Positions 3,221-24,609 of a stretch of DNA of 64,000 nucleotides are shown here, piece by piece (within the stretch, counting starts at the first letter, position 1; every line of letters starts with the position of its first letter). This DNA is from Agromyces atrinae (GTDB lineage: Bacteria; Actinomycetota; Actinomycetes; Actinomycetales; Microbacteriaceae): NCBI RefSeq assembly GCF_013407835.1, contig NZ_JACCBI010000001.1:2294001-2358000 (forward strand). The letters run 5' to 3'. The notes beneath the pieces were generated by a model. It was not told the DNA's origin. It worked only from the letters and a program-made list of their open reading frames with translations, and did not search any database. Made by a program: the position numbers and the translations under genes.

Positions 3221-3380
3221 GAATAAGGAGATCCGACCCGACACGCCGGCCCGAGGCATCCCCCCGGCGGCGCGCCGCCCGCGATCTCCTTATCCGCGTG
3301 CACGGATGCTGCCGAATCGGCCGCTCACCGCGTGTCGGATGACGCACGGCGGCGTGTCGGGCCGATCCGCAGCATCCGTG
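3221..3380. repeat. Palindromic elements A1 + B1
   Basis: A1 (3221-3297) has perfect 11-bp arms ATAAGGAGATC / GATCTCCTTAT. Inside are GACACGCCG and GGCGCGCC, which can form an inner stem. B1 (3301-3380) has perfect 12-bp arms CACGGATGCTGC / GCAGCATCCGTG and contains CGCGTGTCG and CGGCGTGTC. The pair fills the gap between two convergent genes, so it may act as a bidirectional terminator. Both types recur many times up to position 24,609. Confidence 0.9.
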
Positions 3381-3402
3381 ATCGGGGGCTGCGCACCCCG
3401 CG

Positions 3403-3726
3403 TCAGTGGACGTGCGGCTGATCGCGCTCGAAGCCCCACTCATCGGCGAACTGTTCGGGGCTGAGCGTCTCGAGCTCCTCGATCGCGAGGCCGAGCAACG
3501 CTTCGGCCGTGTCACCGTCGTTCTGGCTCGCGCGGTACATGACGTGCCCGTCCGAGATGCGGCGGATGACGAGGTCGGCCGTACCGGGCCCCCAGCTCTC
3601 GCCGCCGAGTCCGACGAAACTCGCCGCGAGCGCTCCGACGGTCGCGACAGTGCGCACGACGGCCTTGAGGGGCGACAGCGGCACGAGCTCGATCTCGGCG
3701 ATCCACAGTTCGGAGGCGGTCGTCAT
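3403..3726 (-). CDS. Conserved hypothetical protein, 107 aa
   Basis: I do not recognise a named family. The protein begins MTTASELWIAEIELVPL, has one hydrophobic stretch (VVRTVATVGALAASFVGLGG, residues about 20-39) and ends in an acidic, histidine-containing tail. ATG 3726 is preferred to the in-frame upstream start because GGGGGG precedes it and the upstream residues look non-coding. It lies between two A/B repeat pairs and is convergent with the esterase. Confidence 0.6.
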   Translation of the reverse strand: MTTASELWIAEIELVPLSPLKAVVRTVATVGALAASFVGLGGESWGPGTADLVIRRISDGHVMYRASQNDGDTAEALLGLAIEELETLSPEQFADEWGFERDQPHVH

Positions 3727-3768
3727 CCCCCCATCGAACCAGATGACGGATGACGCGTGCGGGTTGTT

Positions 3769-3951
3769 CACGGATGCTGCAGATCAGGCGGCATGACGCG
3801 TGTCGCCTGTCGCGCCGCGGCGTGTCGCCCTCATCCGCAGCATCCGTGACCGGGGCGACCGCCCGCTCGCGCGACGGATCAGGAGATCCGGGCCGCCACG
3901 CCGGCGAGCGTCATCCGCTCACCGGCGTGTCGGAGAGATTCTCCTTATCGG
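3769..3951. repeat. Palindromic elements B2 + A2
   Basis: B2 (3769-3848) has 12-bp arms CACGGATGCTGC / GCAGCATCCGTG. A2 (3874-3951) is more diverged, with arms GGATCAGGAGA / GATTCTCCTTATC. In A2 the inner CACGCCGGCG pairs with CGGCGTGTCGG. The right arm of A2 contains the TAA stop codon of the galactanase gene (3945-3947). B2 lies just upstream of the 107-aa gene. Confidence 0.88.
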
Positions 3952-5828
3952 GCGACGCGCCGGCGACGGAGGCCGAGCAGCGCGAGGCCGGCCAGCACCA
4001 CGAGTGCGGCGAGGCCGAGCGCCGGGGCCACCGATGTGCCGGCCGTCGCGAGTGCCGCGCGGTCGGAGCCGGGCGCCGCCGTGTCGGACCCCGACCCGCC
4101 GGGCGTCGAGCCCGAATCGGGTCCGGAACCACCGGGCGACGGCACGGGGCCGGGCGAGGGAACGGGTTCGGGCGACGGTTCGGGTTCCGGCGACGGCTCT
4201 GGCTCGGGCGAAGGCTCCGGCTCCACCGCGGGCTCCGACCGGTCATCCGCCGCGAACGCCGCGATGCTCGGCAGCGCGCGACCGTCGAAGTCGAAGACGG
4301 CCTGGTTCTCCCACGCGTTGCCCGAGGCCGGATCGGCCGGGTCCCAGCCGTTGCCGGCAACGGCCGTCCACGCGGGTTCCCAGTACACGGCGCCGAGGCC
4401 GCGACCGCCGGGTGCTGCCGCGACGACGTCCTGCACGGCACGGAAGTTCGCCTGCTGACCCTCGACCGTCGCGGGGTAACCCGTGACGAGCTGCTCCTCG
4501 CGGGCGATCACGTTCTCCCACGGTGCGACCAGGTTGTCGTCGAGGGTGAACGGGTAGGCGGTCTCGACGACGAGCACGTCGCGGTCGTACCGATCGGAGA
4601 GCACCGAGACGGCCTCCTGCAGGTCGGCGAGACTGCCGTGCCAGTAGCCGTAATACGAGAGTCCGATGAGGTCGAAGGGCACGGCGCGTGCCGTCACCTC
4701 GTCGAACCACCACGTGAGTCCGCCGATGCCGTTGTTGATGTTCGTGAGGTGCAGGATGACCTCGGTCGACGGGTCGACGGCCTTCACGGCGTTCGCACCG
4801 GCGGTAAGGAAGAGCGCGAGGTTGTCCCACTGGGCGCCGTCGACGCCGTCGTCGGGGATCACGTCCCACGTCTGGCCGCTCGGCCACAGCATGCCCGGGT
4901 TGATCTCGTTGCCGACCTGCACGTAGTCGGCCGTGATGCCCGTGTCCTTGAGCGCTTGCAGCACGTCGGTGGTGTGCGCGGCGACGTCGGCGGCGAGCTG
5001 CGCGGGCGTGTGTCCGACCCACGCGGCGGGAACGCCCTGCGCTCCCGGGTCGGTCCAGCGGTCGGAGTAGTGGAAGTCGACGAGGAGCTCCATGCCGGCA
5101 TCCACGATGCGCTCGGCCATCGCGACGACCTGCGGCGTCATGTTGTAGCCGTCGGCCGAGTCGACCCACACCTTCAGGCGGCCGATGTTCGCGCCCGCGT
5201 CGGCGAGGATCTCGACGGGGTCGCCCGCCGTGCCGTCCTCCGACGAGTAGACGGCGCCGAAGTCCTCGTTCTTCGGCACACCCGAGAGGTCGGCGCCGCG
5301 AAGGCCGCGGTCGACCGTGCCCTGCTCGATCGACACCGCGTCGAGGCTCGCCCACGAGCCGGCGGGCCCGTCGGTCACGAGGCCGACCGTGCACGCGGCA
5401 TCCCCCGTCGCATAGCCGGAGACCGCGAGGTGCAGCCACGCGTCATCCGTCTCGGTCGACGGCACGACGACGCTGCCGTCGGTGCCGCACCCCGAGAACA
5501 CGAGCCGGGATGCCGCGAGCGAGCCGCCCGACTTCACCTGGGCGCGCAGTGTGTGCCAGCCCTCGGGCAGGGTGAGCTGCTGCGTCGTCGAGATGCGTCC
5601 GTCGGTCGGGAGCCAGTGCGTCAGCCGGAGCCCGCCGTCGATCCCGACCGACTCGACCGCGGCGGCGCCGCTCGTCGACTCGGTGGTCCAGCCGGTGAGC
5701 CCGTCGTCGAAGCCCGGGTTGACGAGCTCCGGCGTCGCTGCGGCGAAGGCGGGTGCCGCGGGTGCGGCGATGAGCGCGAGCGCGGTCACCACCGCCCCGA
5801 GAACTCGCGGGGTGCGTGATCGTGTCAT
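3945..5828 (-). CDS. ganB: Arabinogalactan endo-beta-1,4-galactanase, GH53, surface-anchored
   Basis: 627 aa secreted enzyme that cleaves beta-1,4-galactan to galacto-oligosaccharides. Residues 1-30 are a signal peptide ending AAPAFAA. An N-terminal carbohydrate-binding-like domain follows (about 31-175), then the GH53 barrel. The acid/base Glu is in YVQVGNEINPG and the nucleophile Glu in VLVVETAYPF. A Pro-Glu-Ser repeat spacer (PEPSPEPEPS) leads to LATAGTS, a hydrophobic helix and RRRR, resembling a sortase signal although LATAG is not the canonical LAxTG. The ATG at 5828 has AAGGAGG. It lies 41 nt after the GH42 gene, so the two are one operon, equivalent to Bacillus ganA-ganB. Its stop codon is inside repeat A2. 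Confidence 0.93.
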   Translation of the reverse strand: MTRSRTPRVLGAVVTALALIAAPAAPAFAAATPELVNPGFDDGLTGWTTESTSGAAAVESVGIDGGLRLTHWLPTDGRISTTQQLTLPEGWHTLRAQVKSGGSLAASRLVFSGCGTDGSVVVPSTETDDAWLHLAVSGYATGDAACTVGLVTDGPAGSWASLDAVSIEQGTVDRGLRGADLSGVPKNEDFGAVYSSEDGTAGDPVEILADAGANIGRLKVWVDSADGYNMTPQVVAMAERIVDAGMELLVDFHYSDRWTDPGAQGVPAAWVGHTPAQLAADVAAHTTDVLQALKDTGITADYVQVGNEINPGMLWPSGQTWDVIPDDGVDGAQWDNLALFLTAGANAVKAVDPSTEVILHLTNINNGIGGLTWWFDEVTARAVPFDLIGLSYYGYWHGSLADLQEAVSVLSDRYDRDVLVVETAYPFTLDDNLVAPWENVIAREEQLVTGYPATVEGQQANFRAVQDVVAAAPGGRGLGAVYWEPAWTAVAGNGWDPADPASGNAWENQAVFDFDGRALPSIAAFAADDRSEPAVEPEPSPEPEPSPEPEPSPEPVPSPGPVPSPGGSGPDSGSTPGGSGSDTAAPGSDRAALATAGTSVAPALGLAALVVLAGLALLGLRRRRVAR

Positions 5829-5869
5829 GTCGTCCTCCTTGACGTGGTGACCGCGGGCGCGGGGTGCGC

Positions 5870-7948
5870 TCAGCGGGGCGAAGCGATGATGCGGTAGCCG
5901 GCGCCCGGCACGGTGATCTCGCCGTCGACGTGGTCGCCGGTCAGCAGATCGGTGCCGTGCGCCGCGACGACGGCGGGCTCGTCGGCGTGGTTGATGTGGA
6001 AGGCGAAGCGCCGTTCGCCGTCGACGCGCTCGACCGACTCGAGTCCCGCGGGCGGTGCCGCGTGTGCGACGCCGGCTCGGGCGAGCACGCCGTCGACGAA
6101 GGACTGCAGGTCGTCGCCCGTGAGCTTCGTCGAGACGTACCACGCGGTGCCGTCGCCGCGGGCGTTGCGCGTGATGGCGGGGCCGCCCGCGGCGGGGCCG
6201 GTCGCGTAGAGCGCTTCGCTCTCGGCACCGGTGAGCACGATCTCCTCGCTCCAGGCCGCACCGCGGCGACCGTCTCCGAGGTCGACCGTCTCGCCCTCGT
6301 GCAGCGGCAGGAACTCGTGGATCTCGAGGCCGAGCACGTCGCGCAGCGCTCCCGGCGAGGCACCCGCGGCGACCTCGTCGTTCGCTCCGACGATGCCCGA
6401 GAAGTACGAGACGACGAGCGTGCCGCCGCCCGCGACGTAGCGGTCGAGCGACGCGGCGCCCTCGTCGCCGAGCAGGTAGAGGCTCGGCGCGAAGACGACG
6501 TCGTAGCCGCTCAGGTCGTGCTCGGGCAGCACGAAGTCGATCGTCACGCCGCGGTTCCAGAGCGCGGTGTAGAAGGCTTCGACGCGCTCGCGGTGGCCGA
6601 GTTCGACCGAGGGCCGCCACTCGAGGTCGAGGGCCCAGAACGATTCGATGCTCCAGACGACGGCGACGGATGCCTCGACGCGGCTGCCGCGCACGGGGCC
6701 GAGCGCGCCGAGCGCCGAGCCCAGCTCCTCGACCTCGCGCCAGATCCGCGTGCCGGTGCCGGCGTGCGGCAGCATCGCCGAGTGGAACTTCTCGGCGCCG
6801 AAGCGGCTTGCGCGGAACTGGAAGAACATGATGGCGTCGGCGCCGCGAGCGAAGTGGCTCAGGCTGTTGCGGGCGAGCTCGCCGGGGCGCTTCGCGATGT
6901 TGCGCGGCTGCCAGTTGACGGCCGACGTCGAGTGCTCCATGAGGATCCAGGGGCGACCGCCCGCGAGCGACCGGGTGAGGTCGGCGTCCATCGCGAGCAT
7001 GACGTGGTTGTCGCGGCGTTCGGCGACGAGGTAGTGGTCGTTCGCGACGACGTCGACCTCGCGCGCCCACGACCAGTAGTCGACCGAGGGGCAGTTCGTC
7101 GCCATGAAGTTCGTCGTGATGGGGGTCGTCTGCGTGTAGCGACGGATGACGTCGCGCTCGGCGACGTAGCAGGCGAGCAGCGCGTCGGACGTGAAGCGCT
7201 GGTAGTCGAGGCGCTGGGCCTGGTTCGAGACGCTCGCCGAGAGACGCGGGGCGTCGATCTCGTCCCAGTCGCCGTAGCGCTGCCCCCAGAAGAGCGTTCC
7301 CCACGCGGCGTTGAGCGCGTCGAGGGTCGTGTACCGGGCTCGCGCCCACTCACGGAACGCCGCAACCGAGTAGTCGTCGTAGCTGTCGCTGATGGGGGCG
7401 CCGTACTCGTTGTGGATGTGCCACATGACGACGGCGGGGTTCGAGGCGTACCGGCGGGCGAGCTGCTCGGTGATGCCGGTCGCGGCACGGCGGTACTCGG
7501 GCGAGCTAGGGCTGACCATGCCGCGCGAGCCGAAGCCGAGGCGGATGCCGTCGCGCGTGACGGGGTGCGCCTCGGGGTACTTCTTCCAGAACCACGCGGG
7601 GGGCGCGGCCGTCGGCGTGCCGAGGTCGACGTCGATGCCGGCTTCGGCGAGCAGGCCGATGAGGTCGTCGAGGAACGTGAAATCGTACTCACCCTCACGC
7701 GGCTCGAGCAGGACCCACGAGAAGATGCCGACGCTCACGAGGTTGACGCCCGCGCGCCTCATGAGCTCGATGTCCTCGATCCAGACGTCGCGGCTCCACT
7801 GCTCGGGGTTGTAGTCGCCGCCGTAGCGGACCTCCCGCCCGGGAATGCGGTGCACCGAGGATGACTCGCGCGTCGGTTCGGCGAGAGCGGGCGAATCGGT
7901 CGCCGCCACTCGTCGCGAATCGAGGACTTCGGAAGTGGGCGTCGACAT
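5870..7948 (-). CDS. ganA: Beta-galactosidase, GH42
   Basis: 692 aa. GH42 features are N-terminal VRYGGDYNPEQW, the acid/base Glu in WHIHNEYG (about 158-165), and the nucleophile Glu in PWILMEHST (about 325). The usual barrel, trimerisation and beta domains follow. No signal peptide is present, so it acts in the cytosol on imported galacto-oligosaccharides made by the GH53 enzyme. The start ATG 7948 has AAAGGAG upstream. It is divergent from the binding-protein gene across a symmetric promoter and is presumably under the LacI regulator. The role follows the Bacillus gan locus by synteny. Confidence 0.95.
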   Translation of the reverse strand: MSTPTSEVLDSRRVAATDSPALAEPTRESSSVHRIPGREVRYGGDYNPEQWSRDVWIEDIELMRRAGVNLVSVGIFSWVLLEPREGEYDFTFLDDLIGLLAEAGIDVDLGTPTAAPPAWFWKKYPEAHPVTRDGIRLGFGSRGMVSPSSPEYRRAATGITEQLARRYASNPAVVMWHIHNEYGAPISDSYDDYSVAAFREWARARYTTLDALNAAWGTLFWGQRYGDWDEIDAPRLSASVSNQAQRLDYQRFTSDALLACYVAERDVIRRYTQTTPITTNFMATNCPSVDYWSWAREVDVVANDHYLVAERRDNHVMLAMDADLTRSLAGGRPWILMEHSTSAVNWQPRNIAKRPGELARNSLSHFARGADAIMFFQFRASRFGAEKFHSAMLPHAGTGTRIWREVEELGSALGALGPVRGSRVEASVAVVWSIESFWALDLEWRPSVELGHRERVEAFYTALWNRGVTIDFVLPEHDLSGYDVVFAPSLYLLGDEGAASLDRYVAGGGTLVVSYFSGIVGANDEVAAGASPGALRDVLGLEIHEFLPLHEGETVDLGDGRRGAAWSEEIVLTGAESEALYATGPAAGGPAITRNARGDGTAWYVSTKLTGDDLQSFVDGVLARAGVAHAAPPAGLESVERVDGERRFAFHINHADEPAVVAAHGTDLLTGDHVDGEITVPGAGYRIIASPR

Positions 7949-8002
7949 GGCGCGATCTCCTTTGACTGTGTGCGGTCACAGTTCTATCACAGCCATGGAT
8001 GC

Positions 8003-8056
8003 CGCTGTCAAACGTCATCGCTGTGTTGACAGCGATCTTTTTGTGTGGATTACTAA
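8003..8056. promoter_or_regulatory. Back-to-back divergent gan promoter inside an inverted repeat
   Basis: CGCTGTCAA (8003-8011) and TTGACAGCG (8026-8034) form a 9-bp perfect inverted repeat with 14 bp between. Each arm contains a consensus TTGACA -35 box, one facing each way. The rightward -10 candidates are ATTACT (8049-8054) or TACTAA (8051-8056). Leftward, GATAGAAC lies near 7984-7991. A LacI protein bound here would block both units at once. A second short repeat, CTGTG-N6-CACAG, lies at about 7966-7982. Confidence 0.6.
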
Positions 8057-8151
8057 TACCGGTCACAGGCTCACCGACGTTCCTCCGAGTGTCAGCGAGC
8101 GACCACCCCCCCCTCGCATCACACAGTCAGCTTTTCGACAAGGAGGACGAA

Positions 8152-9453
8152 ATGCGCTCATCTCTTCGCATGGGAGCCATCGCCACCGCCGCTACTGCGG
8201 CTTTGCTTCTCGCCGGTTGTTCGGCCGATGCCGGGGGCGGTGAATCCGGCCCCGTCGAGCTCACATACTGGGCATGGGCTCCGAACCTCGAGCAGGTCGT
8301 CGAGATCTGGAACGAGAAGAACCCCGACATCCAGGTCACCGTGAACAAGCAGGACGGCGGCGACCCCGCCATCACCAAGCTGCTCACGGCGATCAAGGCG
8401 GGCAGCGGCGCTCCCGACATGATCCAGGCCGAGTACCAGAAGCTCCCGACGCTCGTGTCGGCCGACGCGCTCGCCGACATCTCCGACGCACTCGGCTCCG
8501 ACGTCGCCGAGGGCTTCCCCTCGGCCGTGTGGGACTCGGTCACGCTCGGCGGCGACGCCGTCTACGCCGTCCCGCAGGACACCGGCCCCATGATGGCCTA
8601 CTACCGCACCGACATCCTCGACCAGTACGGTCTCTCGATCCCCACCACGTGGGACGAGTACGCCGAGACGGCGCGTGCCCTCCACGCCGCCGACCCGTCG
8701 AAGTACCTCGGCACGTTCTCGGCCAACGACGCCGGCTGGTTCGCCGGTCTCGCGCAGCAGGCCGGCGCCTCGTGGTGGTCCATCGACGGCGACGCCTGGG
8801 GCGTCGGCATCGACGAGGAGCCCACGCAGAAGGTCGCCGAGTACTGGGGCGAGCTCGTCGAGGAAGGCGTCATCGACAACAAGCCGATGTACACCCCCGA
8901 GTGGAACGCCGGCCTCAACGACGGCACACAGGTCGGTTGGGTCTCGTCGGTCTGGGGCCCCGGAGTGCTGAACGGCAACGCCGCAGACACCGCCGGCCTC
9001 TGGACCGCGGCGACGATCCCCGCGTGGGATGCCTCGGAGCCGACCAACGGCAACTGGGGCGGTTCCTCGACCGCTGTCACGACGCAGTCGAAGCACCCCG
9101 AGCAGGCCGCCGAGTTCATCACGTGGCTCAACACCGACCCCGAGGCGATCGCCGCTCTCATCCAGACGTCGGGCATCTACCCGGCCGACTCCGAGGCCGC
9201 GGCCGCCGCGCTCACCGAGCCGCCCGCGTTCTTCAGCGGCCAGGCCGACTTCTACGACATCGCCGCAGAAGCCGCGTCCGCCGTGCAGCCCTTCACCTAC
9301 GGCCCGAACGTCAACGTCGCGTACAGCGCGTACAACGACGAGTTCGCCAAGGCGGCCGAGGCGAAGACCGCCGACGCCTTCACGAAGGCCGTCGCCGAGA
9401 TGCAGTCGATCACGATCGACGACCTCACGAAGAGCGGCTTCACCGTCAAGTAG
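8152..9453 (+). CDS. ganS: Galacto-oligosaccharide ABC transporter substrate-binding lipoprotein
   Basis: 433 aa family 1 extracellular solute-binding protein. A signal peptide with lipobox LLLAGC (Cys about 23) shows lipoprotein anchoring. The mature region starts with the typical VELTYWAWAPN. ATG 8152 has AAGGAGGACGA directly upstream; the longer in-frame extension crosses the promoter and is rejected. It is the first gene of the rightward operon with two permeases and LacI. It lies next to the GH42/GH53 genes, so galactan-derived oligosaccharides are the likely ligand. A strong hairpin (9459-9487) directly after the stop would favour higher expression of this gene than of the permeases. 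Confidence 0.9.
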   Translation: MRSSLRMGAIATAATAALLLAGCSADAGGGESGPVELTYWAWAPNLEQVVEIWNEKNPDIQVTVNKQDGGDPAITKLLTAIKAGSGAPDMIQAEYQKLPTLVSADALADISDALGSDVAEGFPSAVWDSVTLGGDAVYAVPQDTGPMMAYYRTDILDQYGLSIPTTWDEYAETARALHAADPSKYLGTFSANDAGWFAGLAQQAGASWWSIDGDAWGVGIDEEPTQKVAEYWGELVEEGVIDNKPMYTPEWNAGLNDGTQVGWVSSVWGPGVLNGNAADTAGLWTAATIPAWDASEPTNGNWGGSSTAVTTQSKHPEQAAEFITWLNTDPEAIAALIQTSGIYPADSEAAAAALTEPPAFFSGQADFYDIAAEAASAVQPFTYGPNVNVAYSAYNDEFAKAAEAKTADAFTKAVAEMQSITIDDLTKSGFTVK

Positions 9454-9458
9454 CACCC

Positions 9459-9487
9459 GAGGGGCGCGGCCACCGGCCGCGCCCCTC
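9459..9487 (+). terminator. Perfect 13-bp hairpin between ganS and ganP
   Basis: GAGGGGCGCGGCC and GGCCGCGCCCCTC form a perfect 13-bp stem with a 3-nt loop, starting 6 nt after the stop codon. There is no long T-tract. Such hairpins after binding-protein genes act as partial terminators or 3' mRNA stabilisers in other ABC operons. That role is inferred here. Confidence 0.7.
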
Positions 9488-9531
9488 TCCCCTTCCACCG
9501 CGGAGCGATCCGCCTACCCCCGGAGGCAGTC

Positions 9532-10509
9532 GTGACCTCAGTCGCCGATCGACCCCGTGTCGACGCCGCACCCCGGCCGTCGAAGAAGCGGCCCGCACAG
9601 AATCGCAACCAGCGTGCGCTCACCCGCACGGCCTACGCGATGCTCGCGCCCGGCATCGTGCTCTTCGTCGTCTTCATGGCTGCGCCGATCTTCTACACGC
9701 TCTTCCTGAGCTTCCAGAAGAAGCAGGTCGTGGGCCTCGGACTCGGCTCGGGTTCGACAACGACGGCGTTCGCGGGCTTCGAGAACTACATCTCGTCGTT
9801 CACCGACCCCGAGTTCGCCGCGAGCGTCGGGCGCGTGCTGCTCTACGGCGTCGTGCTCATCCCGACGATGCTCGGCCTCGCGCTGCTCTTCGCACTCCTC
9901 CTCGACTCGCGCCGCACCCGCGCGACGACGTTCTCGCGCACCGCGATCTTCCTGCCGTATGCCGTGCCGGCCGTCATCAGCTCACTGCTCTGGGGCTTCC
10001 TCTACCTGCCCGCCGTGAGCCCCTTCTACTACGTGTTCGACCAGTTCGGATGGGAGGTGCCGTCGCTCCTGTCATCCCCCCTCGTGCTCTTCGGCATCGC
10101 GAACATCGCCCTGTGGGGCGGCGTGGGCTTCAACATGATCGTGATGTACACGTCGCTCAAGGCCGTGCCGACCGAGATCTACGAGGCCGCGAAGATCGAC
10201 GGCGCGAGCGAGGTGCAGATCGCGCTCCGCATCAAGGTGCCGATCATCGCGCCCGCCCTCGTCATGACGGCGCTGTTCTCGATGATCGCGACGCTGCAGG
10301 TGTTCGCCGAACCGACGACGCTCCGCCCCCTTACGAACAGCCTCTCGACGAGCTGGTCGCCGCTCATGCTCGTCTACCGCGACGCCTTCACGCGCGATGA
10401 CATCTACTCGGCCGCGGCGACCTCGATCGTCATCGCCGTCGCGACGTTCGTCGTCTCGTTCCTTTTCCTCCGTGTCGTCCAGAAGCGCGCCTTCGGACAG
10501 GAAGACTGA
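9532..10509 (+). CDS. ganP: ABC transporter permease, MalF type
   Basis: 325 aa membrane protein with six or more hydrophobic segments. The first is near residues 35-55 (YAMLAPGIVLFVVFMAAPIF). The cytoplasmic EAA loop, EIYEAAKIDGASE, would contact the ATPase. GTG 9532 has GGAGG upstream. It is followed after 1 nt by the second permease. No ATP-binding subunit is encoded nearby, so a shared MsmX/UgpC-like ATPase elsewhere is likely, as in the Bacillus gan system. Confidence 0.9.
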   Translation: MTSVADRPRVDAAPRPSKKRPAQNRNQRALTRTAYAMLAPGIVLFVVFMAAPIFYTLFLSFQKKQVVGLGLGSGSTTTAFAGFENYISSFTDPEFAASVGRVLLYGVVLIPTMLGLALLFALLLDSRRTRATTFSRTAIFLPYAVPAVISSLLWGFLYLPAVSPFYYVFDQFGWEVPSLLSSPLVLFGIANIALWGGVGFNMIVMYTSLKAVPTEIYEAAKIDGASEVQIALRIKVPIIAPALVMTALFSMIATLQVFAEPTTLRPLTNSLSTSWSPLMLVYRDAFTRDDIYSAAATSIVIAVATFVVSFLFLRVVQKRAFGQED

Positions 10510-10510
10510 C

Positions 10511-12508: not shown

Positions 12509-12689
12509 CGGATAAGGAGATCTGACCCGACACGCCCGCCCGCGTCATCCGCTCACCGGCGCGCCGCCCGCAATCTCCTTATCCGACCCCCGGCCCACCC
12601 CACCCCGTGCGCGGATGCTGCCGATCAGGCAACGCCCCGCGCGTCGGGCGTCGCGAAGCGGCGTGTCACCCGAATCCGCAGCATCCGTG
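12509..12689. repeat. Palindromic elements A3 + B3
   Basis: A3 (12509-12585) has perfect 13-bp arms CGGATAAGGAGAT / ATCTCCTTATCCG. B3 (12610-12689) has perfect 10-bp arms CGGATGCTGC / GCAGCATCCG. The pair fills the convergent junction between the LacI gene and the POT transporter. A3 shares the inner segment CGTCATCCGCTCACCGGCG with A2. Confidence 0.9.
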
Positions 12690-14247: not shown

Positions 14248-14328
14248 CGCGGATGCTGCCGATCCTGCCGAGACCCGCGTGTCGCTCGCCGCTCGGCGGC
14301 GTGTCGGCCGATTCGGCAGCTTCCGCGC
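14248..14328. repeat. Palindromic element B4 (diverged)
   Basis: GCGGATGCTGCC and GGCAGCTTCCGC form a 12-bp stem with one mismatch. The interior keeps CCGCGTGTCG and CGGCGTGTCGG. Unlike most copies it lies in a divergent intergenic region, between the POT and GT1 genes, where promoters would be expected. The right end is 17 nt before the GT1 start. Confidence 0.82.
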
Positions 14329-14345: not shown

Positions 14346-15644
14346 GTGCCCTCCCTCCTCATCGCGTGCACCCCTGTCCACGGCCACGTGCAGCCGCTGC
14401 TCGCCGTCGCGCGGCATCTGATCGGCCACGGCCATCGCGTGCGGTTCCTCACGGGCGAGCGCTACCGCTCGGCAGTGGAGGCGACCGGCGCCGAGTACCT
14501 CGCCCTCCCCCGCGACATCGACTACGACGACTCCGACGTCGACGCCGCATTCCCTGATCGCGTCGGCCGCACGGGGGTCGCGGGCATCCGGTGGGATGTC
14601 GAGAACATCTTCCTCGCGCCCGCACCTCTGCAGCTCGCCGCGCTCGATGAGGCGATCGCCGCCGAGCAGACCGATGCCGTCCTCGTCGAGAGCATGTTCG
14701 TCGGTGCTGTCGCTCTCGTGAGCCGGCCCCGCGGCGAGCGCCCGCCCGTCGTCAACCTCGGCATCATCCCGCTCGGGCTCTCGAGCGTCGACACGGCACC
14801 GTTCGGACTCGGCATCGCGCCGATGCCCGGCCTCCGCGGCCGCATCCGCAATCGCGCGCTGCGCTTCGTAGCCGAGCACGTCATCTTCGGCGCGCTGCAG
14901 CGCTCGGCCCAGCGCATGGTGCGAGAGACCACGGGACACGAGCTCGAGGGGTTCTTCCTCGGTTCTGCCGCCCTCGCCGACGCCGTCGTGCAGTTCACGG
15001 TGCCCGAGTTCGAGTATCCGCGCAGCGACCTTCCCGAGCACGTGCACTTCGTCGGCCCCGTCGCACGATCGCGACCGTCATCCGCCGCCCTTCCCGAGTG
15101 GTGGGGCGACCTCGACGGCTCGCGTCCGGTCGTGCACGTGACGCAGGGCACCGTCGCGAACGCCGATCTCGGCGCCCTCATCGTGCCGACGGTCGAGGCC
15201 CTCGCGAGCGATGACGTGCTCGTCGTCGTGAGCACGGGCGGGCGCCCCCTCACCGACCTGCCCGCGCTGCCCTCGAACGTGCGCGCCGCCGAGTACCTGC
15301 CCTACGACGCCCTGCTGCCGCTCACCGACGTCGTCGTCACGAACGGCGGCTACGGCGGCGTGCACTACGCGATGGAGCACGGAGTGCCGCTCGTCGTCGC
15401 GGGCACGACCGAGGACAAGATCGAGGTCTCGGCGCGCGTCGCGTGGTCGGGCGTCGGCATCGACCTGCGCACCGAGCGCCCGACGACGGATGCCGTTCGA
15501 CGCGCCGTTCGCACAGCACTCGCCGACCCGTCGTATCGTGCCGCGAGCGAGCGAGTGGGTGCCGCGATCCGCGCGTCGGCGGGTCTCGACGGTCTCGATG
15601 AAGTGCTGATGGACCTCATCGCCCGGGCTCCTGCCGCCGGATAA
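14346..15644 (+). CDS. GT1-family glycosyltransferase (MGT/UGT-like)
   Basis: 432 aa GT-B fold enzyme that transfers a sugar from a nucleotide sugar to a small-molecule acceptor. The N-terminus has the GT1 motif ACTPVHGHVQPLLAVARHL. The C-terminal donor-binding region contains VTQGTVANADLG, VVVTNGGYGGVHYAMEHGVPLVVAGTTEDK (seen in pieces), matching macrolide/flavonoid glycosyltransferases. GTG 14346 is chosen because the family motif starts at once; a GACAGT box 6 nt upstream fits a leaderless start. The TAA stop is supplied by repeat A5. The acceptor is unknown; drug inactivation or natural-product tailoring are both possible beside an ABC-F gene and an NRPS. Confidence 0.88.
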   Translation: MPSLLIACTPVHGHVQPLLAVARHLIGHGHRVRFLTGERYRSAVEATGAEYLALPRDIDYDDSDVDAAFPDRVGRTGVAGIRWDVENIFLAPAPLQLAALDEAIAAEQTDAVLVESMFVGAVALVSRPRGERPPVVNLGIIPLGLSSVDTAPFGLGIAPMPGLRGRIRNRALRFVAEHVIFGALQRSAQRMVRETTGHELEGFFLGSAALADAVVQFTVPEFEYPRSDLPEHVHFVGPVARSRPSSAALPEWWGDLDGSRPVVHVTQGTVANADLGALIVPTVEALASDDVLVVVSTGGRPLTDLPALPSNVRAAEYLPYDALLPLTDVVVTNGGYGGVHYAMEHGVPLVVAGTTEDKIEVSARVAWSGVGIDLRTERPTTDAVRRAVRTALADPSYRAASERVGAAIRASAGLDGLDEVLMDLIARAPAAG

Positions 15645-15714
15645 GGAGATCGCGCCCGACACGCCGCCGCGCGGCATCCCCGGCTCGGCGCGTCGCCGCG
15701 ATTCTCCTTATCCG
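15638..15714. repeat. Palindromic element A5
   Basis: Arms are CGGATAAGGAGA and TCTCCTTATCCG, with inner GACACGCCG and CGGCGCGTC able to pair. The TAA of the left arm (15642-15644) is the stop codon of the glycosyltransferase. No B element accompanies it. It separates two tandem genes. Confidence 0.9.
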
Positions 15715-16407: not shown

Positions 16408-16484
16408 CGGATAAGGAGATCGGGCACGACACGCCGCTGCGCGGCATCCCTCACCCCGCGCGTCGCCGCGGATCTCCTCATCCG
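16408..16484. repeat. Palindromic element A6
   Basis: CGGATAAGGAGATC and GATCTCCTCATCCG are near-perfect arms, with inner GACACGCCG / CGCGCGTCG. It lies between convergent genes (phosphopantetheinyl transferase and ABC-F), a position suited to a bidirectional terminator. Confidence 0.9.
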
Positions 16485-18130: not shown

Positions 18131-18149
18131 ACGAATCCTTCGAATCGAC

Positions 18150-18203: not shown

Positions 18204-18261
18204 GGATCGATCGGCCGCCGGCTCGGAGGAACTCAACGAGCGCGGTGGGCCTACTCAGCCG

Positions 18262-18285: not shown

Positions 18286-18392
18286 CTGACCAGGGTAGCA
18301 GGGGCGATCAGCCCGCCGAAAGGTCGATCTCTCGGGGTGCGCGGGGCGTGCGACCCCGTTCGATTGACCCCTCGAGCGCGAGAATGGCGCGA

Positions 18393-18478
18393 GAGGGGGC
18401 GAGCGCGAGGCGCGAGGACGTGCGGGGGCGAGCGCGAGGCGCGAGGACGTGCGGGGGCGAGCGCGAGAGGGCACGAGT
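18393..18478. repeat. 29-bp tandem repeat, about three units
   Basis: The unit TGCGGGGGCGAGCGCGAGGC plus GCGAGGACG is present at 18421-18449. A nearly complete copy precedes it (18393-18420), and a partial copy follows (18450-18478). It lies between the ABC-F promoter and the end of the M1 peptidase gene. The repeats contain no gene. Slippage expansion is the likely origin. Confidence 0.85.
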
Positions 18479-18484
18479 CCCGCG

Positions 18485-19798
18485 CTAGCGCGGGAACGCC
18501 GGCAGCGCGCGCTCGGCGAGCCAGGGGGCGAGCACGGCGGTCGCGCCCGGGGCGAGCTCCTCGGCGAGCGCGAGCAGGTCGTCGGTGGTCGCGAGGCCGT
18601 GACGGTACCGCGTCGTCCACGCGTGGAGGATGTCGGTGAAGACCGCATCACCCGCGAAGACGCGCAGCGCGTGGACGGCGAGGGCGCCCCGCTTGTAGAC
18701 GCGGTCGTCGAACATGTCGTCGACGCCCGGGTCGACGAGCAGCAGATCCTGCGGGGCCGAGGCGAGGGCCCGGTGGTGACGCCGCGCGAGGGTCTCGACG
18801 CGCTCCGACCCCGACGCCTCCGACCACAGCCATTCGGCGTAGCAGCAGAAGCCCTCGTTGAGCCAGATGTCGCTCCAGCGGCGCAGCCCCACACTGTTGC
18901 CGAACCACTGGTGGGCGAGTTCGTGGGCGACGAGGCGTTCCTCACGGCCCGATCCGTCGAGATGGTTCGAGCCGAACGTCGCGATGCCCTGCGCTTCGAG
19001 GGGGATCTCGATCTCGTCCTCGGTGACGACGACGCCGTAGCCGTCGAACGGGTACGGCCCGAAGGTGCGCTCGAAGAGCGTCATCATCTCGGGAAGACGC
19101 TCGAGCTCGCGGTCGACGACGGGAGCGATCGCCGCGGGCCGGTGCAGCGTGCCGGCGACTCCCGCGAGGTCGACGGGCACGCTCGCGAGCCGCCCGACCT
19201 GCACGGCGACGAGGTACGTCGGGGTGGGCGCCGCCTGCTCGAAGCGCCACACGCCGCGGCCTCCCACGATCCGGCGTGAGACGAGCGCGCCGCTCGCGAT
19301 GACCGTGTACGCGGCATCCGTTGCGAACGTCACCCGATAGGTCGCCTTGTCCGACGGATGATCGTTGCAGGGGTACCAGCTCGGCGCACCCGAGGGCTGC
19401 GAGGCGACGAGCACGCCGTCGTCGAGCTCTTCCCAGCCGATGGTTCCCCAGCGCGAGCGACGGGGACGCGGCGCCCCCGCGTACTCGACGACGACCGTCA
19501 CGGTCGCCCCTGCGGCGAGCGCCTTCTCGGGGGTGATGCGCACCTTGCCGTCGGCGTGACGGAACGGGGTCTTCCGCCCGTCGACGCGCACGCGCTTCAC
19601 GCCGAGTCCGACGAGGTCGAGGCTGAACCGCGAGAGCTTCTGGTCGGTCACGATCGTGAGGGTCGCGGTGCCCTCGAGCCGGTTGGTCGGCACCCGGTAC
19701 GTCAGGTCGAGGTCGTACGACGCGACGCGGTATCCGCCGTTGCCGCTGCGGGGGATGTACGGGTCACCGGCGGTCTCGGCACCGGCGACGGCCGGCAT
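18485..19798 (-). CDS. M1-family zinc metallopeptidase coupled to the NRPS
   Basis: 437 aa. The zinc motif HELAHQWFGN and downstream NEGFCCYAEW (HExxH-x18-E) are intact, and the upstream domain has the M1-type beta sandwich. It is shorter than housekeeping PepN (about 850 aa) because the C-terminal domains are missing. No signal peptide is seen, so it is cytosolic. ATG 19798 overlaps the NRPS stop (TGATG), so translation is coupled. Poly-lysine producers are reported to carry polymer-degrading peptidases; by position this could cut or trim the NRPS product. That link is inference. It could also be a general aminopeptidase. Confidence 0.88.
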   Translation of the reverse strand: MPAVAGAETAGDPYIPRSGNGGYRVASYDLDLTYRVPTNRLEGTATLTIVTDQKLSRFSLDLVGLGVKRVRVDGRKTPFRHADGKVRITPEKALAAGATVTVVVEYAGAPRPRRSRWGTIGWEELDDGVLVASQPSGAPSWYPCNDHPSDKATYRVTFATDAAYTVIASGALVSRRIVGGRGVWRFEQAAPTPTYLVAVQVGRLASVPVDLAGVAGTLHRPAAIAPVVDRELERLPEMMTLFERTFGPYPFDGYGVVVTEDEIEIPLEAQGIATFGSNHLDGSGREERLVAHELAHQWFGNSVGLRRWSDIWLNEGFCCYAEWLWSEASGSERVETLARRHHRALASAPQDLLLVDPGVDDMFDDRVYKRGALAVHALRVFAGDAVFTDILHAWTTRYRHGLATTDDLLALAEELAPGATAVLAPWLAERALPAFPR

Positions 19799-22700
19799 CA
19801 GCGCACCTTCGGGTGATAGTCCGAGACGCGCACAGCCCGCCACGGACCGATGGGGTTGCCGCTCCAGCGGCTTCCGACGGGAACGCTCTCACCGCGCATG
19901 ACGAGCGACGCGGGGCCGACGGTCGCGTGCGCGCCGATCGACGCGGCGGGCAGGATCACGCTGTGCGGCCCGAGCGTCGCACCGTTCTCGAGGGTGACGG
20001 CATCCATGCTCATGATTCGATCATGGAACAGGTGCGTCTGCACGACGCAGCCCCGGTTGACGGTCGATCCGTCGCCGAGAGTGACGAGATCCGCCTCGGG
20101 CAACCAGTAGCTCTCGCACCACACGCCGCGCCCGATGCGTGCGCCGAGCGAACGCAGCCAGACGTTCAACGCGGGCGTTCCCGACGCCGACTTCGCGAAC
20201 CACGGCGCAGCGACCATCTCGACGAACGTGTCGGCGACTTCGGTGCGCCACACGAAGCTCGACCAGAGCGGCTGCTCGTCGGCGGGGATGCGCCCGACGA
20301 TGACCCACTTCGCGACGGTCGAGACACCGGCGGCGACGGCACCGGCGGCGAGCATGACGACACCGCTCAGCAGGATCGTGACGAGCACGCCGAACATCGT
20401 CACGAGGCCGGCGAACGCGAACATCACGGCGATGCCGATGAGCACCGACACGACGACGGGCACGAAGCGGCAGAGTTCCCACAGTGTGCGCGCGACGCGC
20501 AGGCCCGCACCGGGTCGGTAGGTGCGGGCGTCATCCGAGTCGACCGCCGTCCGCCGCAGTCGCACGGGCGGCGAACCGAGCCACGACGTTCCGGGCTTCG
20601 ACTTCTGCGGCGCGACCGAGAGTACGGCGACGAGCGAATCGCGCGCGACGCGCATGCCCGGCGTCGCGAGGCCCGAATTGCCGAGGAACGCGCGCTTGCC
20701 GATCGAGACGCGGCCGAGGTTCATCCACCCGCCACGCAGTTCGTACGACGCGACCATCGTGTCGTCGGCGAGGAACGCGTGATCGCCGATCGACGTCATC
20801 GACGGAATGAGCAGCACGGTCGACGCCTCGACGCCGCGCCCCACCTCGGCGCCGAGCATGCGCAACCACACAGGCGTGAAGAGGCTCGAGTAGAGCGGGA
20901 AGAGGAGCGTGCGGCTGAGGTCGAGCAGTCGCTCGGTCGTCCACGCCTGCCACGCGACGCGGCTGCGCACCGGGTGCAGGCCCTCGGTGAGGCCGATCGC
21001 AAGCACGCGCACGAGCACGACGACGGCGCCCGCGAGCACGACGCCCGCGACGAGCGTCGCGGGAACGACCCAGACGAGAGCGGCGAGGGATGCCTCGGCG
21101 AGCGAAGCCGACCCACGGATGCCGGCGGCGAACACCGCCGCGCCCGCGACGAACGCGACGACGGGCAGGAGCGAGATCGCCGTCGAGGCGAGCGCGTACG
21201 CCACGAGCCACCGGCGCGGCTTGGGAGCCGTCGCTTCGGCCTTCGCCGCGGGGCCGATGCGTTCGGCGGGCGAACCGGCCCACTTCTGGCCCGACGGCAC
21301 GCGACCGAAGACGGCCGACCCCGGCGCGATCTCGGCGTGCTTGCCGATGCGCGCACCCGGCAGGAGCGTCGATCGCGCGCCGACCGTCGCGTGGGCACCG
21401 ATGCGCACCCGGCCGAGCCGCAGCACGTCGCCGTCGATCCAGTAGCCCGCGAGGTCGACCTCGGGCTCGATCGAGGCTCCCGCGCCGACGGTGAGCATGC
21501 CCGTGACCGGCGGCAACGTGTGCAGGTCGACGCCCTCGCCGATCTTCGCGCCGAGCGCCCGCGCGTAGAGAAGGATCCAGGGGGCGCCCGCGAGGCCGAC
21601 GGCCCCGATCTGCTGCGCGATCTGCTCGGCGAGCCACAGCCGCAGGTGCACCGAACCTCCGCGCGGATGATCACCCGGCTCGACGCCCGCGAGCAGCGCC
21701 CGCGCCGCGACGACCGCGATGAGCATGCGCCCCCACGGCGTCGCGAAGATGCCGAGCCCGACGATGAGCACCCACAGATCGACGGCGGGGAGGAACTCGA
21801 ACCCGCCCACCTCGTGCAGGATGCTGCCCGCGGTGAGCAGATAGAACAGCCACCGGATGCCGCTGAGGATGAACAACGGGATGCCGATGAGCGTCTGGAA
21901 CCACTGCGTCCGACGCGGGGTGGGGCCCGGCCGGTGGAAGGTCACGGCGTCGTCGCCCGTGTCGCGCGCCGCGAGCTCCGCGGCCTGCTGTGCGAGACGC
22001 GGGTGGTCGTAGATGTGGGCGACCGTGAACTCGGGGTCACGCGCCCGCAGGCGCCCGACGAGTTGCGCGGCCGAGAGCGATCCTCCGCCGAGGTCGAAGA
22101 AGTTCGATTCGGCATCGGGCACGGGAACCCCGAGCACGGCCTGCCACTCGCCCGCGAGCCACGCCTCGGTGTCGGTGAAACCGTCGGCGTCGGCATCCAC
22201 TCCGGGCAGCGGCCACGGAAGCGCGGCGCGGTCGACCTTGCCCGACACACGCGTCGGCAGGTCGTCGACGATCGCGAGCAGCGGCACGAGTGCGGCGGGC
22301 AGCTCTTCGGCGAGGCGTCGGCGCGCGGCATCCCGATCGAAGGCGGGGGTGACGGCGAGGTAGCCGACGAGCACGCTGTTGCCGGCGTCGGTCTTCCGCA
22401 CGGCGGCCGCGGCGCCCGAGACGCCGGGCAGGTTCTGCAGGGCCGACTCGATCTCGCCGAGCTCGATGCGACGCCCGCCGACCTTGACCTGGTCGTCGGC
22501 GCGGCCCTGGAAGAGGATGCCGGTGCCGTCGAAACTCACGAGGTCGCCCGAGCGGTAGGCGCGCTCCCAGCCGAGGGTCGGCATCGGCGCGTACTTCTCG
22601 GCGTCCTTCTCGGGGTCGAGGTAACGCGCGAGCCCGACGCCGCCGATGATGAGCTCACCGACCTCGCCCGGCGCGACCGGCTCGCCCGAGCCATCCACGA

Positions 22701-23715
22701 TCGCGAGGTCCCAGCCGTCGAGGGGCAGGCCGATGTAGATCGGGCCGCTGCCGTCGAGCAGCGCGCCGCACGAGACGACGGTCGCCTCGGTGGGGCCGTA
22801 CGTGTTCCAGACCTCACGCCCGTCGGCGGCGAGACGCGCGACGAGTTCGGGCGGGCAGGCCTCGCCGCCGAAGATGAGCAGACGCACATTCTCGATCGAC
22901 TCGGCGGGCCAGAGCGCTGCGAGGGTCGGCACGGTCGAGACGACGGTGATGCCGTGGCTCAGCAGCCAGGGACCGAGGTCCATGCCGCTCTTCACGAGCG
23001 AACGCGGCGCGGGCACGAGGCACGCGCCGTGCCGCCACGCGAGCCACATCTCTTCGCACGACGCGTCGAACGCGACCGAGAGGCCCGCGAGTACGCGATC
23101 GCCGGGGCCGAGCGGTTCGCCCTGCAGGAACATGCGGGCTTCGGCGTCGACGAACGCGGCGGCCGAGCGGTGGGTGACGGCGACGCCCTTCGGCACGCCC
23201 GTCGAGCCCGAGGTGAAGATGATCCACGCATCGTCGCTCGGCTGCGGCGGCGTCGCGACGGGGATCGTGGCGGTGCTCGCGTGCGGAGGCTCGCCGTCGA
23301 AGAGCTCGGCCGACAGTTCACCCGAGGGCGTGAACTGGCCGCCGCCCGCGATGACGCCCGCGACCCCGGCCGCGCCGAACACGAGCTCGGCACGCTCCTC
23401 GGGGTCGTCGACGTCGACCGGCACGTAGGCGGCACCCGCGGCGATCACGCCGAGGATCGCGATGTACAGCTCGCGCGACCCCGACGGCATGCGCACGCCG
23501 ACCCGGTCGCCGCGTCGCACGCCCGCTTCGTGGAGGCGCGCAGCGGTGCGGATGACGCGCGCCATGAGTTCGCGATAGCTGAGCGCACCGGCACCGTCGT
23601 CGATCGCCGACGACTCGGGATGACGCGCCGCCGTCTCACGCAGGATGTCGAGGAGCGTGCGCGGCTCGGGTGCCCGGCTCGCGAGGCGGAGCTGATCGGC
23701 GTCCGTCGAAATCAC
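19798..23715 (-). CDS. Pls/PosA-family nonribosomal peptide synthetase (poly-amino-acid synthetase)
   Basis: 1305 aa, close to the epsilon-poly-lysine synthetase Pls (about 1319 aa). Order: adenylation domain (1-510) with FTSGSTGVPKG (167-177), FDASCEEMW (216-224), NTYGPTE (304-310), YRSGDL and the PTRVSGKVDR lysine; thiolation domain with DLGGGSLS (Ser about 546); then about 700 residues alternating six membrane segments with three hexapeptide-repeat-like soluble domains (about 605-1305), which in Pls couple monomers iteratively. There are no classical condensation or thioesterase domains. GTG 23715 has AGGAGG upstream. The product is predicted to be a homopolymer of a cationic amino acid. 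A TATCGT -10 candidate lies at 23810-23815. Confidence 0.92.
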   Translation of the reverse strand: MISTDADQLRLASRAPEPRTLLDILRETAARHPESSAIDDGAGALSYRELMARVIRTAARLHEAGVRRGDRVGVRMPSGSRELYIAILGVIAAGAAYVPVDVDDPEERAELVFGAAGVAGVIAGGGQFTPSGELSAELFDGEPPHASTATIPVATPPQPSDDAWIIFTSGSTGVPKGVAVTHRSAAAFVDAEARMFLQGEPLGPGDRVLAGLSVAFDASCEEMWLAWRHGACLVPAPRSLVKSGMDLGPWLLSHGITVVSTVPTLAALWPAESIENVRLLIFGGEACPPELVARLAADGREVWNTYGPTEATVVSCGALLDGSGPIYIGLPLDGWDLAIVDGSGEPVAPGEVGELIIGGVGLARYLDPEKDAEKYAPMPTLGWERAYRSGDLVSFDGTGILFQGRADDQVKVGGRRIELGEIESALQNLPGVSGAAAAVRKTDAGNSVLVGYLAVTPAFDRDAARRRLAEELPAALVPLLAIVDDLPTRVSGKVDRAALPWPLPGVDADADGFTDTEAWLAGEWQAVLGVPVPDAESNFFDLGGGSLSAAQLVGRLRARDPEFTVAHIYDHPRLAQQAAELAARDTGDDAVTFHRPGPTPRRTQWFQTLIGIPLFILSGIRWLFYLLTAGSILHEVGGFEFLPAVDLWVLIVGLGIFATPWGRMLIAVVAARALLAGVEPGDHPRGGSVHLRLWLAEQIAQQIGAVGLAGAPWILLYARALGAKIGEGVDLHTLPPVTGMLTVGAGASIEPEVDLAGYWIDGDVLRLGRVRIGAHATVGARSTLLPGARIGKHAEIAPGSAVFGRVPSGQKWAGSPAERIGPAAKAEATAPKPRRWLVAYALASTAISLLPVVAFVAGAAVFAAGIRGSASLAEASLAALVWVVPATLVAGVVLAGAVVVLVRVLAIGLTEGLHPVRSRVAWQAWTTERLLDLSRTLLFPLYSSLFTPVWLRMLGAEVGRGVEASTVLLIPSMTSIGDHAFLADDTMVASYELRGGWMNLGRVSIGKRAFLGNSGLATPGMRVARDSLVAVLSVAPQKSKPGTSWLGSPPVRLRRTAVDSDDARTYRPGAGLRVARTLWELCRFVPVVVSVLIGIAVMFAFAGLVTMFGVLVTILLSGVVMLAAGAVAAGVSTVAKWVIVGRIPADEQPLWSSFVWRTEVADTFVEMVAAPWFAKSASGTPALNVWLRSLGARIGRGVWCESYWLPEADLVTLGDGSTVNRGCVVQTHLFHDRIMSMDAVTLENGATLGPHSVILPAASIGAHATVGPASLVMRGESVPVGSRWSGNPIGPWRAVRVSDYHPKVR

Positions 23716-23921
23716 GAGGCGTCCTCCTGATCGAGCGCCCCGCGGGTCGCGGCGCGAGAGTCGATCCACTGTCGCCCCGGTCGGGAAACGGCAGATGGAC
23801 TTTCGGTGAACGATACGCGCACACCGCGCCACATCCCGCGCCGCGTGTCGCCCCGTGGCGCGTCGCCGGCGCCGACCCCACTCAGCTTCGGCCACGGCCC
23901 GGCCCCCGACCCCACCCCGGT

Positions 23922-24609
23922 CACGGATGCTGCAGATCGAACGCTTCCCCGCATGTCACACGCTTCGCGGCGGCGTGTCACCCCGATCCGCAGCATCCGC
24001 GCACGGGGACGACCCTGTCTCAGCCCGGCCCAACCAGCAGATAAGGAGATCTGACCCGACACGCCGCAACGCGGCATCCCCCACCCGGCGCGCCCCGCCG
24101 AATCTCCTTATCCGCCGCGGGCGAGCCGCACAGGAAGTACGGGATGGAGAGAAGTACAAGAGTGAGAGCGGGGAGAAGACGAGAGGATGCCGCAGCATCG
24201 GTCATCCGCCAGCTCCCACCCCCCACCACCGATCACGGATGCTGCCGATCGAACGCTTCCCCGCGTGTCGCACCCCGCTCGGCGGCGTGTCACCCCGATT
24301 CGCAGCATCCGCGCACGGGGAAGACCCTGTCTCAGCCCGGCCCTCCTCAGCGGATAAGGAGATCTGACCCGACACGCCGCAACGCGGCATCCCCCACCCG
24401 GCGCGCCCCACCGATTCTCCCTATCCGCCGCGGGAGCAACCGGGAGGGAGAAGCAGTGAGGAAAGGGATGAGGGGATGCCGCGGGCGAGCTGCACGAGAA
24501 AGACAGGGGGGGGTGAGGCGAGAGCCGATCACGGATGCTGCCGATCGAACGCTTCCCCGCGTGTCGCCCGCTTCGCGGCGGCGTGTCGCCCCGATCCGCA
24601 GCATCGGTG
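23922..24609. repeat. B7-A7-B8-A8-B9 repeat array upstream of the NRPS
   Basis: The order is B7 (23922-24000), A7 (24038-24116), B8 (24234-24312), A8 (24352-24428), B9 (24530-24609). The spacer between B and A, including GACCCTGTCTCAGCCCGGCC, is also conserved in both B-A units. The array therefore arose by tandem duplication of a composite unit with a period near 300 bp; the third unit lacks A. A collapsed B remnant, GGATGCCGCAGCATC, lies at 24185-24199. The array fills most of the 936-bp gene-free stretch between the NRPS start and the rocD stop. The rest of it is purine-rich filler (about 24120-24180 and 24430-24520) with no gene. Confidence 0.92.

What the first reader, a model, noticed from the sequence alone, without database searches (positions are those of the whole stretch)
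3221..24609. Two interlocking palindrome families (A and B), 13 copies, confined to the left 25 kb
A (about 78 bp, arms CGGATAAGGAGAT) and B (about 80 bp, arms CACGGATGCTGC) recur with conserved interiors that share GACACGCCG / CGGCGTGTC. They occur as A-B or B-A neighbours 4-40 bp apart, like REP/BIME units, but I do not recognise these sequences. The strong arms and the shared core suggest a mobilisable or protein-bound repeat system. Many lie between convergent genes, as if used as terminators.
Basis: seen in the sequence. Interest (0 to 1): 0.75.

Follow-up and report, generated by a model that had tools for sequence, protein, structure and literature searches.

The report
Order-wide palindromes with swappable arms
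These are about 80-base DNA palindromes scattered between genes in many related bacteria: an inner motif recurs across a whole bacterial order while the outer arms differ from species to species, which points to a dispersed repeat read by an unidentified DNA-binding protein.

Summary
The window holds 14 copies (7 A, 7 B), not 13. The genome holds at least 45 (18 A, 27 B) plus one of a third arm type; 24 of the 45 lie in 105 kb. Length is rigid (A 77 bp, B 79-80 bp). Arms and an inner motif GACACGCCG are conserved; the rest drifts. Within 130 bp, A and B always alternate (17 of 17 neighbours).

A and B arms in exact form are absent from 59 same-genus genomes, but the architecture is not. A covariance model finds it in 96 of 398 genomes of the family, a second model in 55 of 396 of the order, with arms unrelated between families and the same core and about the same length. 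At one orthologous site (upstream of enolase) the arms differ in place between species, with a hybrid in between. G-U pairs are no commoner than chance, so an RNA stem is unlikely. No Y1/RAYT gene was found in the window's genome, no terminator-like site in the stretch scanned, and no recurrent neighbour gene.

Best reading: a REPIN-like dispersed element whose ends are bipartite sites (fast-evolving arm, order-wide core) for an unidentified trans-acting DNA-binding protein. It works like a REPIN but fails REP/RAYT membership. Whether it still moves or serves the host is open.

The parts
3220..3296 (+). A copy 1 (77 bp), 4 bp from B copy 1
3301..3380 (-). B copy 1 (80 bp)
3769..3848 (-). B copy 2 (80 bp)
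3875..3951 (-). A copy 2 (77 bp)
12509..12585 (+). A copy 3 (77 bp)
12610..12689 (-). B copy 3 (80 bp)
14248..14327 (-). B copy 4 (80 bp), alone, in the window's only divergent gap with a copy
15638..15714 (+). A copy 4 (77 bp), alone (model R2 scores + best; the orientation rule gave -)
16408..16484 (+). A copy 5 (77 bp), alone
23922..24001 (-). B copy 5, first of the B-A-B-A-B array
24038..24114 (+). A copy 6 of the array
24234..24313 (-). B copy 6 of the array
24351..24427 (+). A copy 7 of the array, 95% identical to A copy 6 over 87 nt
24530..24609 (-). B copy 7, last of the array

Best explanation
A and B are two arm types of one dispersed, non-coding, REPIN-like element. Each half is a bipartite protein site: an outer arm of 13-17 bp and, about 20 bp in, the core GCGACACGCCG. 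A trans-acting DNA-binding protein (or a pair of proteins) recognises arm plus core, on double-stranded or hairpin DNA, at rigid spacing; the centre is only a spacer of set length. The core contact is old and shared across the order. The arm contact evolves quickly, and the arms of the copies in a genome follow it in place, so each species and each co-existing subfamily has its own matched arms. Copies spread in the past by a mechanism that this protein probably takes part in, and they settle mostly where transcription starts are not disturbed. SHOWN: architecture, rigid length, core in many genera of the order, species-specific arms of matching type, arms that differ in place at one orthologous site with a hybrid in between, presence and absence between species. 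INFERRED: the protein, its co-evolution with the arms, and its part in mobility.
For: Rigid length with drifting centre: mean pairwise identity of arms 0.91-0.95, first core 0.90 (A) and 0.81 (B), middle 0.52 (A) and 0.38 (B; 0.33 expected from composition). Order-wide spread: 96 of 398 and 55 of 396 genomes. Arms the models had not seen recur within their own genomes: GTGACGGT in both arms of 6 of 6 fetched G632 loci, AACCAGCGCTGCA-type arms in 3 of 3 G560 loci. All 15 arm pairs show two-sided changes; 208 cells changed on both sides, 15 on one side (most rows had been chosen for palindromic arms, so this leans that way). Arm type matches within an element although up to three types share a genome: 33 of 33 elements in five species. 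Upstream of enolase: GATCC/GATCC in G155 and G216 (G265 cut at a locus end), GATCC/GTTCC in G309, GTTCC/GTTCC in G346, none by eye in G377 and G075. Mixed arms in 5 of 11 elements of G309 and G346, one of them with a single-step intermediate arm. Extra arm copies exactly 19 bp away in 20 of 21 same-strand pairs within 70 bp (27 loci). Presence/absence: downstream of enolase present in G216 and G265, absent in G155, G377, G309 and G075. In the own genome 1 of 27 gaps with copies is divergent against 29 of 70 other gaps.
Against: No protein was identified. 50 proteins scanned in or beside the 105-kb cluster gave no transposase or integrase family above cut-off, and no neighbouring gene family recurs in more than 4 genomes. 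No target-site duplication was seen by eye, and no empty site with alignable flanks on both sides was obtained. All 31 A-arm matches of the genome at <=1 mismatch lie in 77-bp elements, so no autonomous parent with such A arms exists here. Against mobility: in G333 and G396 both elements of a 5.9-kb collinear stretch (92% identical) are shared, and one convergent gap carries an element in three genera, with different arms. Both models were built on elements that carry the core, and loci were fetched by those models, so the core's constancy and the arm matching are partly by construction. Most sampled genomes gave no hit (302 of 398, 341 of 396), through real absence or missed arms. The enolase site is itself a divergent gap, one of 6 among 82 in relatives.
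Confidence: 0.5

Rival explanations
1. Host nucleoprotein landmarks: sites maintained for a chromosomal protein (organisation, segregation or regulation), with no mobility. The core contains GACAC, the recognition motif of WhiA, a conserved Gram-positive DNA-binding protein that acts as a monomer on an asymmetric site.
For: Recurrent core and in-place arm differences (GACAC in 69 of 73 first cores, rows anchored on the core). The paper's passages give GACAC as the WhiA motif, GACGC at a bound target, monomer binding and no fixed orientation (PMC3781837, passages only). Cores occur both inverted and direct (48 and 19 of 71). Shared positions between species and genera.
Against: Five bases is a weak match. 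WhiA is conserved and (recalled) single-copy, so it does not explain species-specific arms or several arm types in one genome. Presence at a site varies between close species.
Confidence: 0.25
2. Plain MITE: ends bound by the transposase of a lost or distant DNA transposon, copies now dead.
For: Inverted ends of matching type; presence/absence between species; many copies; no coding capacity.
Against: Dead copies should decay along their whole length, but arms and core stay while the centre drifts. Arms differ in place at an orthologous site. No target-site duplication seen. No unpaired A arms at <=1 mismatch in this genome.
Confidence: 0.12
3. RNA-level elements: terminators or mRNA-stabilising 3' hairpins.
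For: Divergent gaps are avoided in the own genome; outer stem with compensatory changes. Folded as single-stranded DNA, 7 of the window's 14 copies give z-scores of -1.3 to -4.8.
Against: Among 111 non-Watson-Crick arm cells, 19 are G-U against 21.6 expected if letters were independent. Arms are conserved in sequence, not only in pairing, within a genome. No terminator-like site in 3000-4200. The direct core arrangement cannot form the inner stem of the inverted one; RNAalifold keeps only the outer 10 pairs.
Confidence: 0.08
4. True REP/REPIN units mobilised by a RAYT.
For: Same outline as Pseudomonas REPINs: conserved inverted ends at fixed distance, variable spacer, compensatory changes (PMC3116915, section 10 part 1).
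Against: No Y1 transposase (PF01797) in the whole genome while the control rings in 5 of 14 genomes; arms of f10 and f15 share no tag with A or B by eye.
Confidence: 0.05

Closest known systems
REPIN (REP doublets forming hairpins, Pseudomonas GI type)
   Same: Two conserved inverted ends at a fixed distance (71 bp between first residues of the two 16-mers in GI), variable spacer whose length matters, compensatory changes, dispersed in extragenic space, several groups per genome (PMC3116915, abstract and section 10 part 1).
   Different: No RAYT/Y1 gene in this genome; an inner core shared by species whose arms are unrelated; arms that differ in place at an orthologous site. Found in an order whose presumed phylum name does not occur in the texts of the two REP surveys I searched by term.
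BIME (bacterial interspersed mosaic element)
   Same: Two palindrome types in strict alternation, 17 of 17 neighbours within 130 bp.
   Different: Each unit here is 77-80 bp with a large spacer, not a 20-40 bp REP; gyrase or IHF binding not tested.
MITE
   Same: Short, non-coding, inverted ends, no genes of its own.
   Different: Centre drifts while ends and core stay; no target duplication seen; no parent element with A arms found in this genome.
WhiA binding sites (GACAC)
   Same: Pentamer inside the core; asymmetric, orientation-free.
   Different: In the passages seen, WhiA sites lie upstream of target genes as short motifs; these are long palindromes that mostly avoid divergent gaps.

Membership tests
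REP/REPIN-RAYT | RAYT (Y1 transposase, PF01797) gene in the genome | tested here: not met
   0 matches in G000 at E<=1e-3; control 5 of 14 genomes; relatives not tested
REP/REPIN-RAYT | Conserved inverted ends at fixed distance with variable spacer | tested here: met
REP/REPIN-RAYT | Unpaired GTAG or CGTC tag beside a short stem | tested here: inconclusive
   No common tag by eye in flanks of 45 copies or in arms of f10/f15; not scored formally
BIME | Alternating palindromic units of two types | tested here: met
   17 of 17 neighbours within 130 bp are A-B or B-A
BIME | Gyrase/IHF/Pol I binding | not testable with these tools
   needs binding assays
MITE | Target-site duplication | tested here: inconclusive
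   none visible by eye at 45 copies; no clean empty site to confirm
MITE | Related autonomous transposon with the same ends | tested here: not met
   All 31 A-arm matches at <=1 mismatch lie in 77-bp elements; own genome only, single B arms not searched genome-wide
Intrinsic terminator | GC stem-loop followed by T tract | tested here: not met
   0 found in window 3000-4200, which holds 4 of the 14 copies; other copies not scanned
RNA structural element | Pair-preserving substitutions with G-U tolerance | tested here: not met
   19 G-U observed, 21.6 expected among 111 non-WC cells; no Rfam match at gathering cut-off
WhiA site | WhiA occupancy | not testable with these tools
   motif GACAC present in 69 of 73 rows anchored on the core, nothing more

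The most novel reading that the evidence does not exclude
An order-wide DNA-marking system: a conserved core-binding protein and a rapidly evolving arm-binding partner assemble on the same roughly 80-bp platform at dozens of intergenic places, and each lineage rewrites its arms across the genome, site by site, as the partner's specificity changes: a bacterial counterpart of fast-evolving centromere or satellite binding.
Probability: 0.25. Interest if true: 0.88.

Novelty: new variant of a known kind. Interest (0 to 1): 0.7.

Why it matters
If right, a dispersed repeat family spans an order of high-GC bacteria, with a built-in control: the constant core and the variable arms separate two recognition events. 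Species with hybrid arms (G309, G346) let one watch binding-site turnover genome-wide, and the missing protein becomes findable by pull-down. It also warns that strict-sequence repeat searches miss families whose ends are rewritten in each species.

Tried and rejected
RAYT/Y1 link: rejected for this genome. Terminators: no support. Known RNA: no Rfam match at gathering cut-off. Phage or plasmid carriage: no exact inverted core pair in viral contigs; no plasmid match for one typed element or for A1-B1; three Streptomyces phage records match 44 bases inside an integrase gene, which I take as chance. Mobiliser near the cluster: 50 proteins scanned, mostly metabolic, transport and regulator families, no transposase or integrase above cut-off (one sub-threshold HTH_Tnp_1_2 hit in a TetR protein). 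Recurrent neighbour gene: none in more than 4 genomes. Empty sites: G155/G216 and the G396 locus gave presence/absence but no alignable junction. Exact helical phasing: arm-arm repeats are 19 bp and direct cores 21-22 bp apart, so I do not claim whole turns. Replication terminus: GC skew of the fetched stretches was too noisy to use. Exact B search of genome contigs gave 6 stretches, none with the core inside the match, taken as chance. Literature: no title or abstract on these elements in the listings (listings shown are capped at 8-20 per search; subscription papers are not held). PMC2267715 and PMC6106888 were looked at by term only and had nothing on them.

Rows dropped: 71 of 91 palindromes were kept; 12 named rows were dropped as chance palindromes (mostly inside genes) and the other 8 for not meeting the arm/core rule. 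A5 used 65 of those 71 plus 8 others (6 window copies, 2 of G056). A4 used 15 of 18 A and 20 of 27 B plus 2 of G056. One search used a wrong record for the window and was redone.
Full report
OBSERVATION. The window holds seven A and seven B palindromes between 3217 and 24616. Chromosome-wide patterns show that the window cuts a larger set: at least 18 A and 27 B (pairs listed in the fetched stretches), of which 24 of 45 lie in C1:2,214,000-2,319,000 (binomial p about 2e-25, although pairs and tandem arrays are not independent). A third arm type lies just upstream of the window, near C1:2,292,626-2,292,716, with arms CTGTTCGCAATTCAGG, close to the arms seen in G035 and G244.

ANATOMY. Arms and core are conserved and the centre is not. 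The core GACACGCCG starts 20 bp inside CGGAT in both families. The second core is inverted in many A copies and mostly direct in B, 21-22 bp from the first. Within 130 bp A and B always alternate, 17 of 17; two same-type neighbours exist at 388 and 693 bp. Every A-arm match in the genome at <=1 mismatch (31) belongs to a 77-bp element. Flanks show no target duplication by eye. RNAalifold on A4 keeps only the outer 10 pairs; 7 window copies folded as single-stranded DNA give z-scores of -1.3 to -4.8.

RELATIVES. Exact A or B arms occur in none of 59 same-genus genomes, and the genome-contig scan gave six coreless hits taken as chance. But a BLAST match led to G056, which has A-like copies with arms CGGATGCGGAGAT and, in one locus, a neighbour with arms GTGCGAAACGAAGGAC and the same core. 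Model R1 (37 sequences) then found matches at E<=1e-3 in 96 of 398 genomes of the family, 38 of 85 genera, own genome included. Model R2 (73 sequences) found matches at E<=1e-4 in 55 of 396 genomes of the order, 22 of 109 genera, own included. Both runs scored only 11-12 candidates per genome with strict filters, so the numbers are floors for positives and say little about negatives; E-values are rough. The arms in f10 (GTGACGGT, 6 of 6 G632 loci) and f15 (AACCAGCGCTGCA, 3 of 3 G560 loci) are unrelated to the models' arms yet repeat within their genomes, which supports these hits independently; two f9 loci have a 61-bp short form. Of 71 elements from 28 genomes, 48 are inverted, 19 direct and 4 other; the four others are all from G127, and by eye they carry an arm-type site in the second core slot.

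WHAT THE ARMS ARE. On alignment A5 all 15 arm pairs show two-sided changes, 208 cells against a shuffle mean of 65; 65 of its 73 rows had been chosen for palindromic arms, so the paired share is partly by construction. Among 111 non-Watson-Crick cells, 19 are G-U and 21.6 are expected if letters were independent: no sign of RNA pairing (my filter treated G-U like any other mismatch). In five species of genus g17, with up to three arm types in one genome, left and right arm types match in 33 of 33 elements (loci had been found with a palindrome model). In the same genus extra arms sit exactly 19 bp away in 20 of 21 same-strand pairs. Upstream of enolase, G155 and G216 have GATCC on both arms, G309 has GATCC/GTTCC, G346 has GTTCC/GTTCC, and G377 and G075 show no element by eye; G265's left arm is cut at a locus end. 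In G309 and G346 together 5 of 11 elements are mixed, one with a single-step intermediate. The simplest reading is that arms mutate in place towards a new preference. Gene conversion from other copies, or independent arrival at the same gap, is not excluded.

STATIC OR MOBILE. For gain or loss: two elements of G155 have no counterpart in the aligned G216 stretch although flanking genes are 85-90% identical, while a third has a related element nearby; the G396 element of L172 was not found in fetched loci of G333, G136, G249, G367 and G198; downstream of enolase 2 of 6 species have one. For persistence: G333 and G396 share both elements of a 5.9-kb stretch, arms unchanged and centres changed; one convergent gap holds an element in G075, G192 and G294, three genera, with different arms.

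SURROUNDINGS. In the own genome 15 tandem, 11 convergent and 1 divergent gap carry copies, against 29 divergent among the 70 other gaps of 90 bp or more in the same stretches (my own gene caller); one A copy (1364430) falls inside a called gene. In relatives: 42 tandem, 34 convergent, 6 divergent, 9 inside genes, of which most look like chance palindromes. The enolase gap is one of the divergent ones. No neighbour gene family is found in more than 4 genomes. Window neighbours are ordinary: carboxylesterase, GH53, GH42, ABC transport, LacI, POT transporter, glycosyltransferase, ABC ATPase, peptidase M1-like, AMP-binding, aminotransferase.

MECHANISM. Shown: architecture, spread, arms of matching type, arms that differ in place at one site, presence/absence between species. 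Inferred: a trans-acting protein reads arm plus core, and the arms follow its changing specificity. I put 0.5 on the REPIN-like reading, 0.25 on a pure host platform (WhiA is a lead for the core only; passages of PMC3781837), and less on the rest. The re-check of counts did not change these odds.

KNOWN SYSTEMS. REPINs work most alike (PMC3116915, abstract and section 10 part 1), but the defining RAYT is absent from this genome. The survey PMC3733652 (abstract, outline and passages) has no occurrence of 'Actinobacteria' in its text, nor does PMC2817692 (term search only).

Noticed in passing
L056:14626-14716 (C1:2292626-2292716, 1.4 kb left of the window): Single copy of a third arm type (arms CTGTTCGCAATTCAGG) with the same core in the window's genome.
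   Followed up: partly
L172:4422-4616 (G396), with many BLAST hits in G396, G333, G367 and G198: A different high-copy dispersed repeat (GGTCTCGATACGTCGAGC...CTACTCGACCAGCGCAG...) in genus g78, in blocks of about 50-100 bp.
   Followed up: no
L232 tail / L239 (G249): Inverted repeat TTCCCTGAGCTTGTCGAAGGG / CCCTTCGGCAAGCTCAGGAA in a gap; looks like another REP-like family.
   Followed up: no
L151:477-567 and L155:848-936 (G127): 89-91 bp palindromes with arms like CCTTGCGCTCAACAGGC and a GACATGCCG or GACACGCCG motif; a possible further arm type, left out of the counts.
   Followed up: no
L133:715-793 and 2580-2690 (G216): Further repeats with many copies in G216 (the first also in G155), seen in the BLAST list.
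   Followed up: no
C1:2252687, 2279195, 1788315: Inverted pairs of CGTCATCCGCC about 91-107 bp apart beside A/B copies; the same GTCATCCG occurs in the centre of several copies.
   Followed up: no
window 25837-25911: 15-bp tandem repeat (CGTGAGCGAGCCCGC, family D9) inside the gene called at 24652-25926.
   Followed up: no
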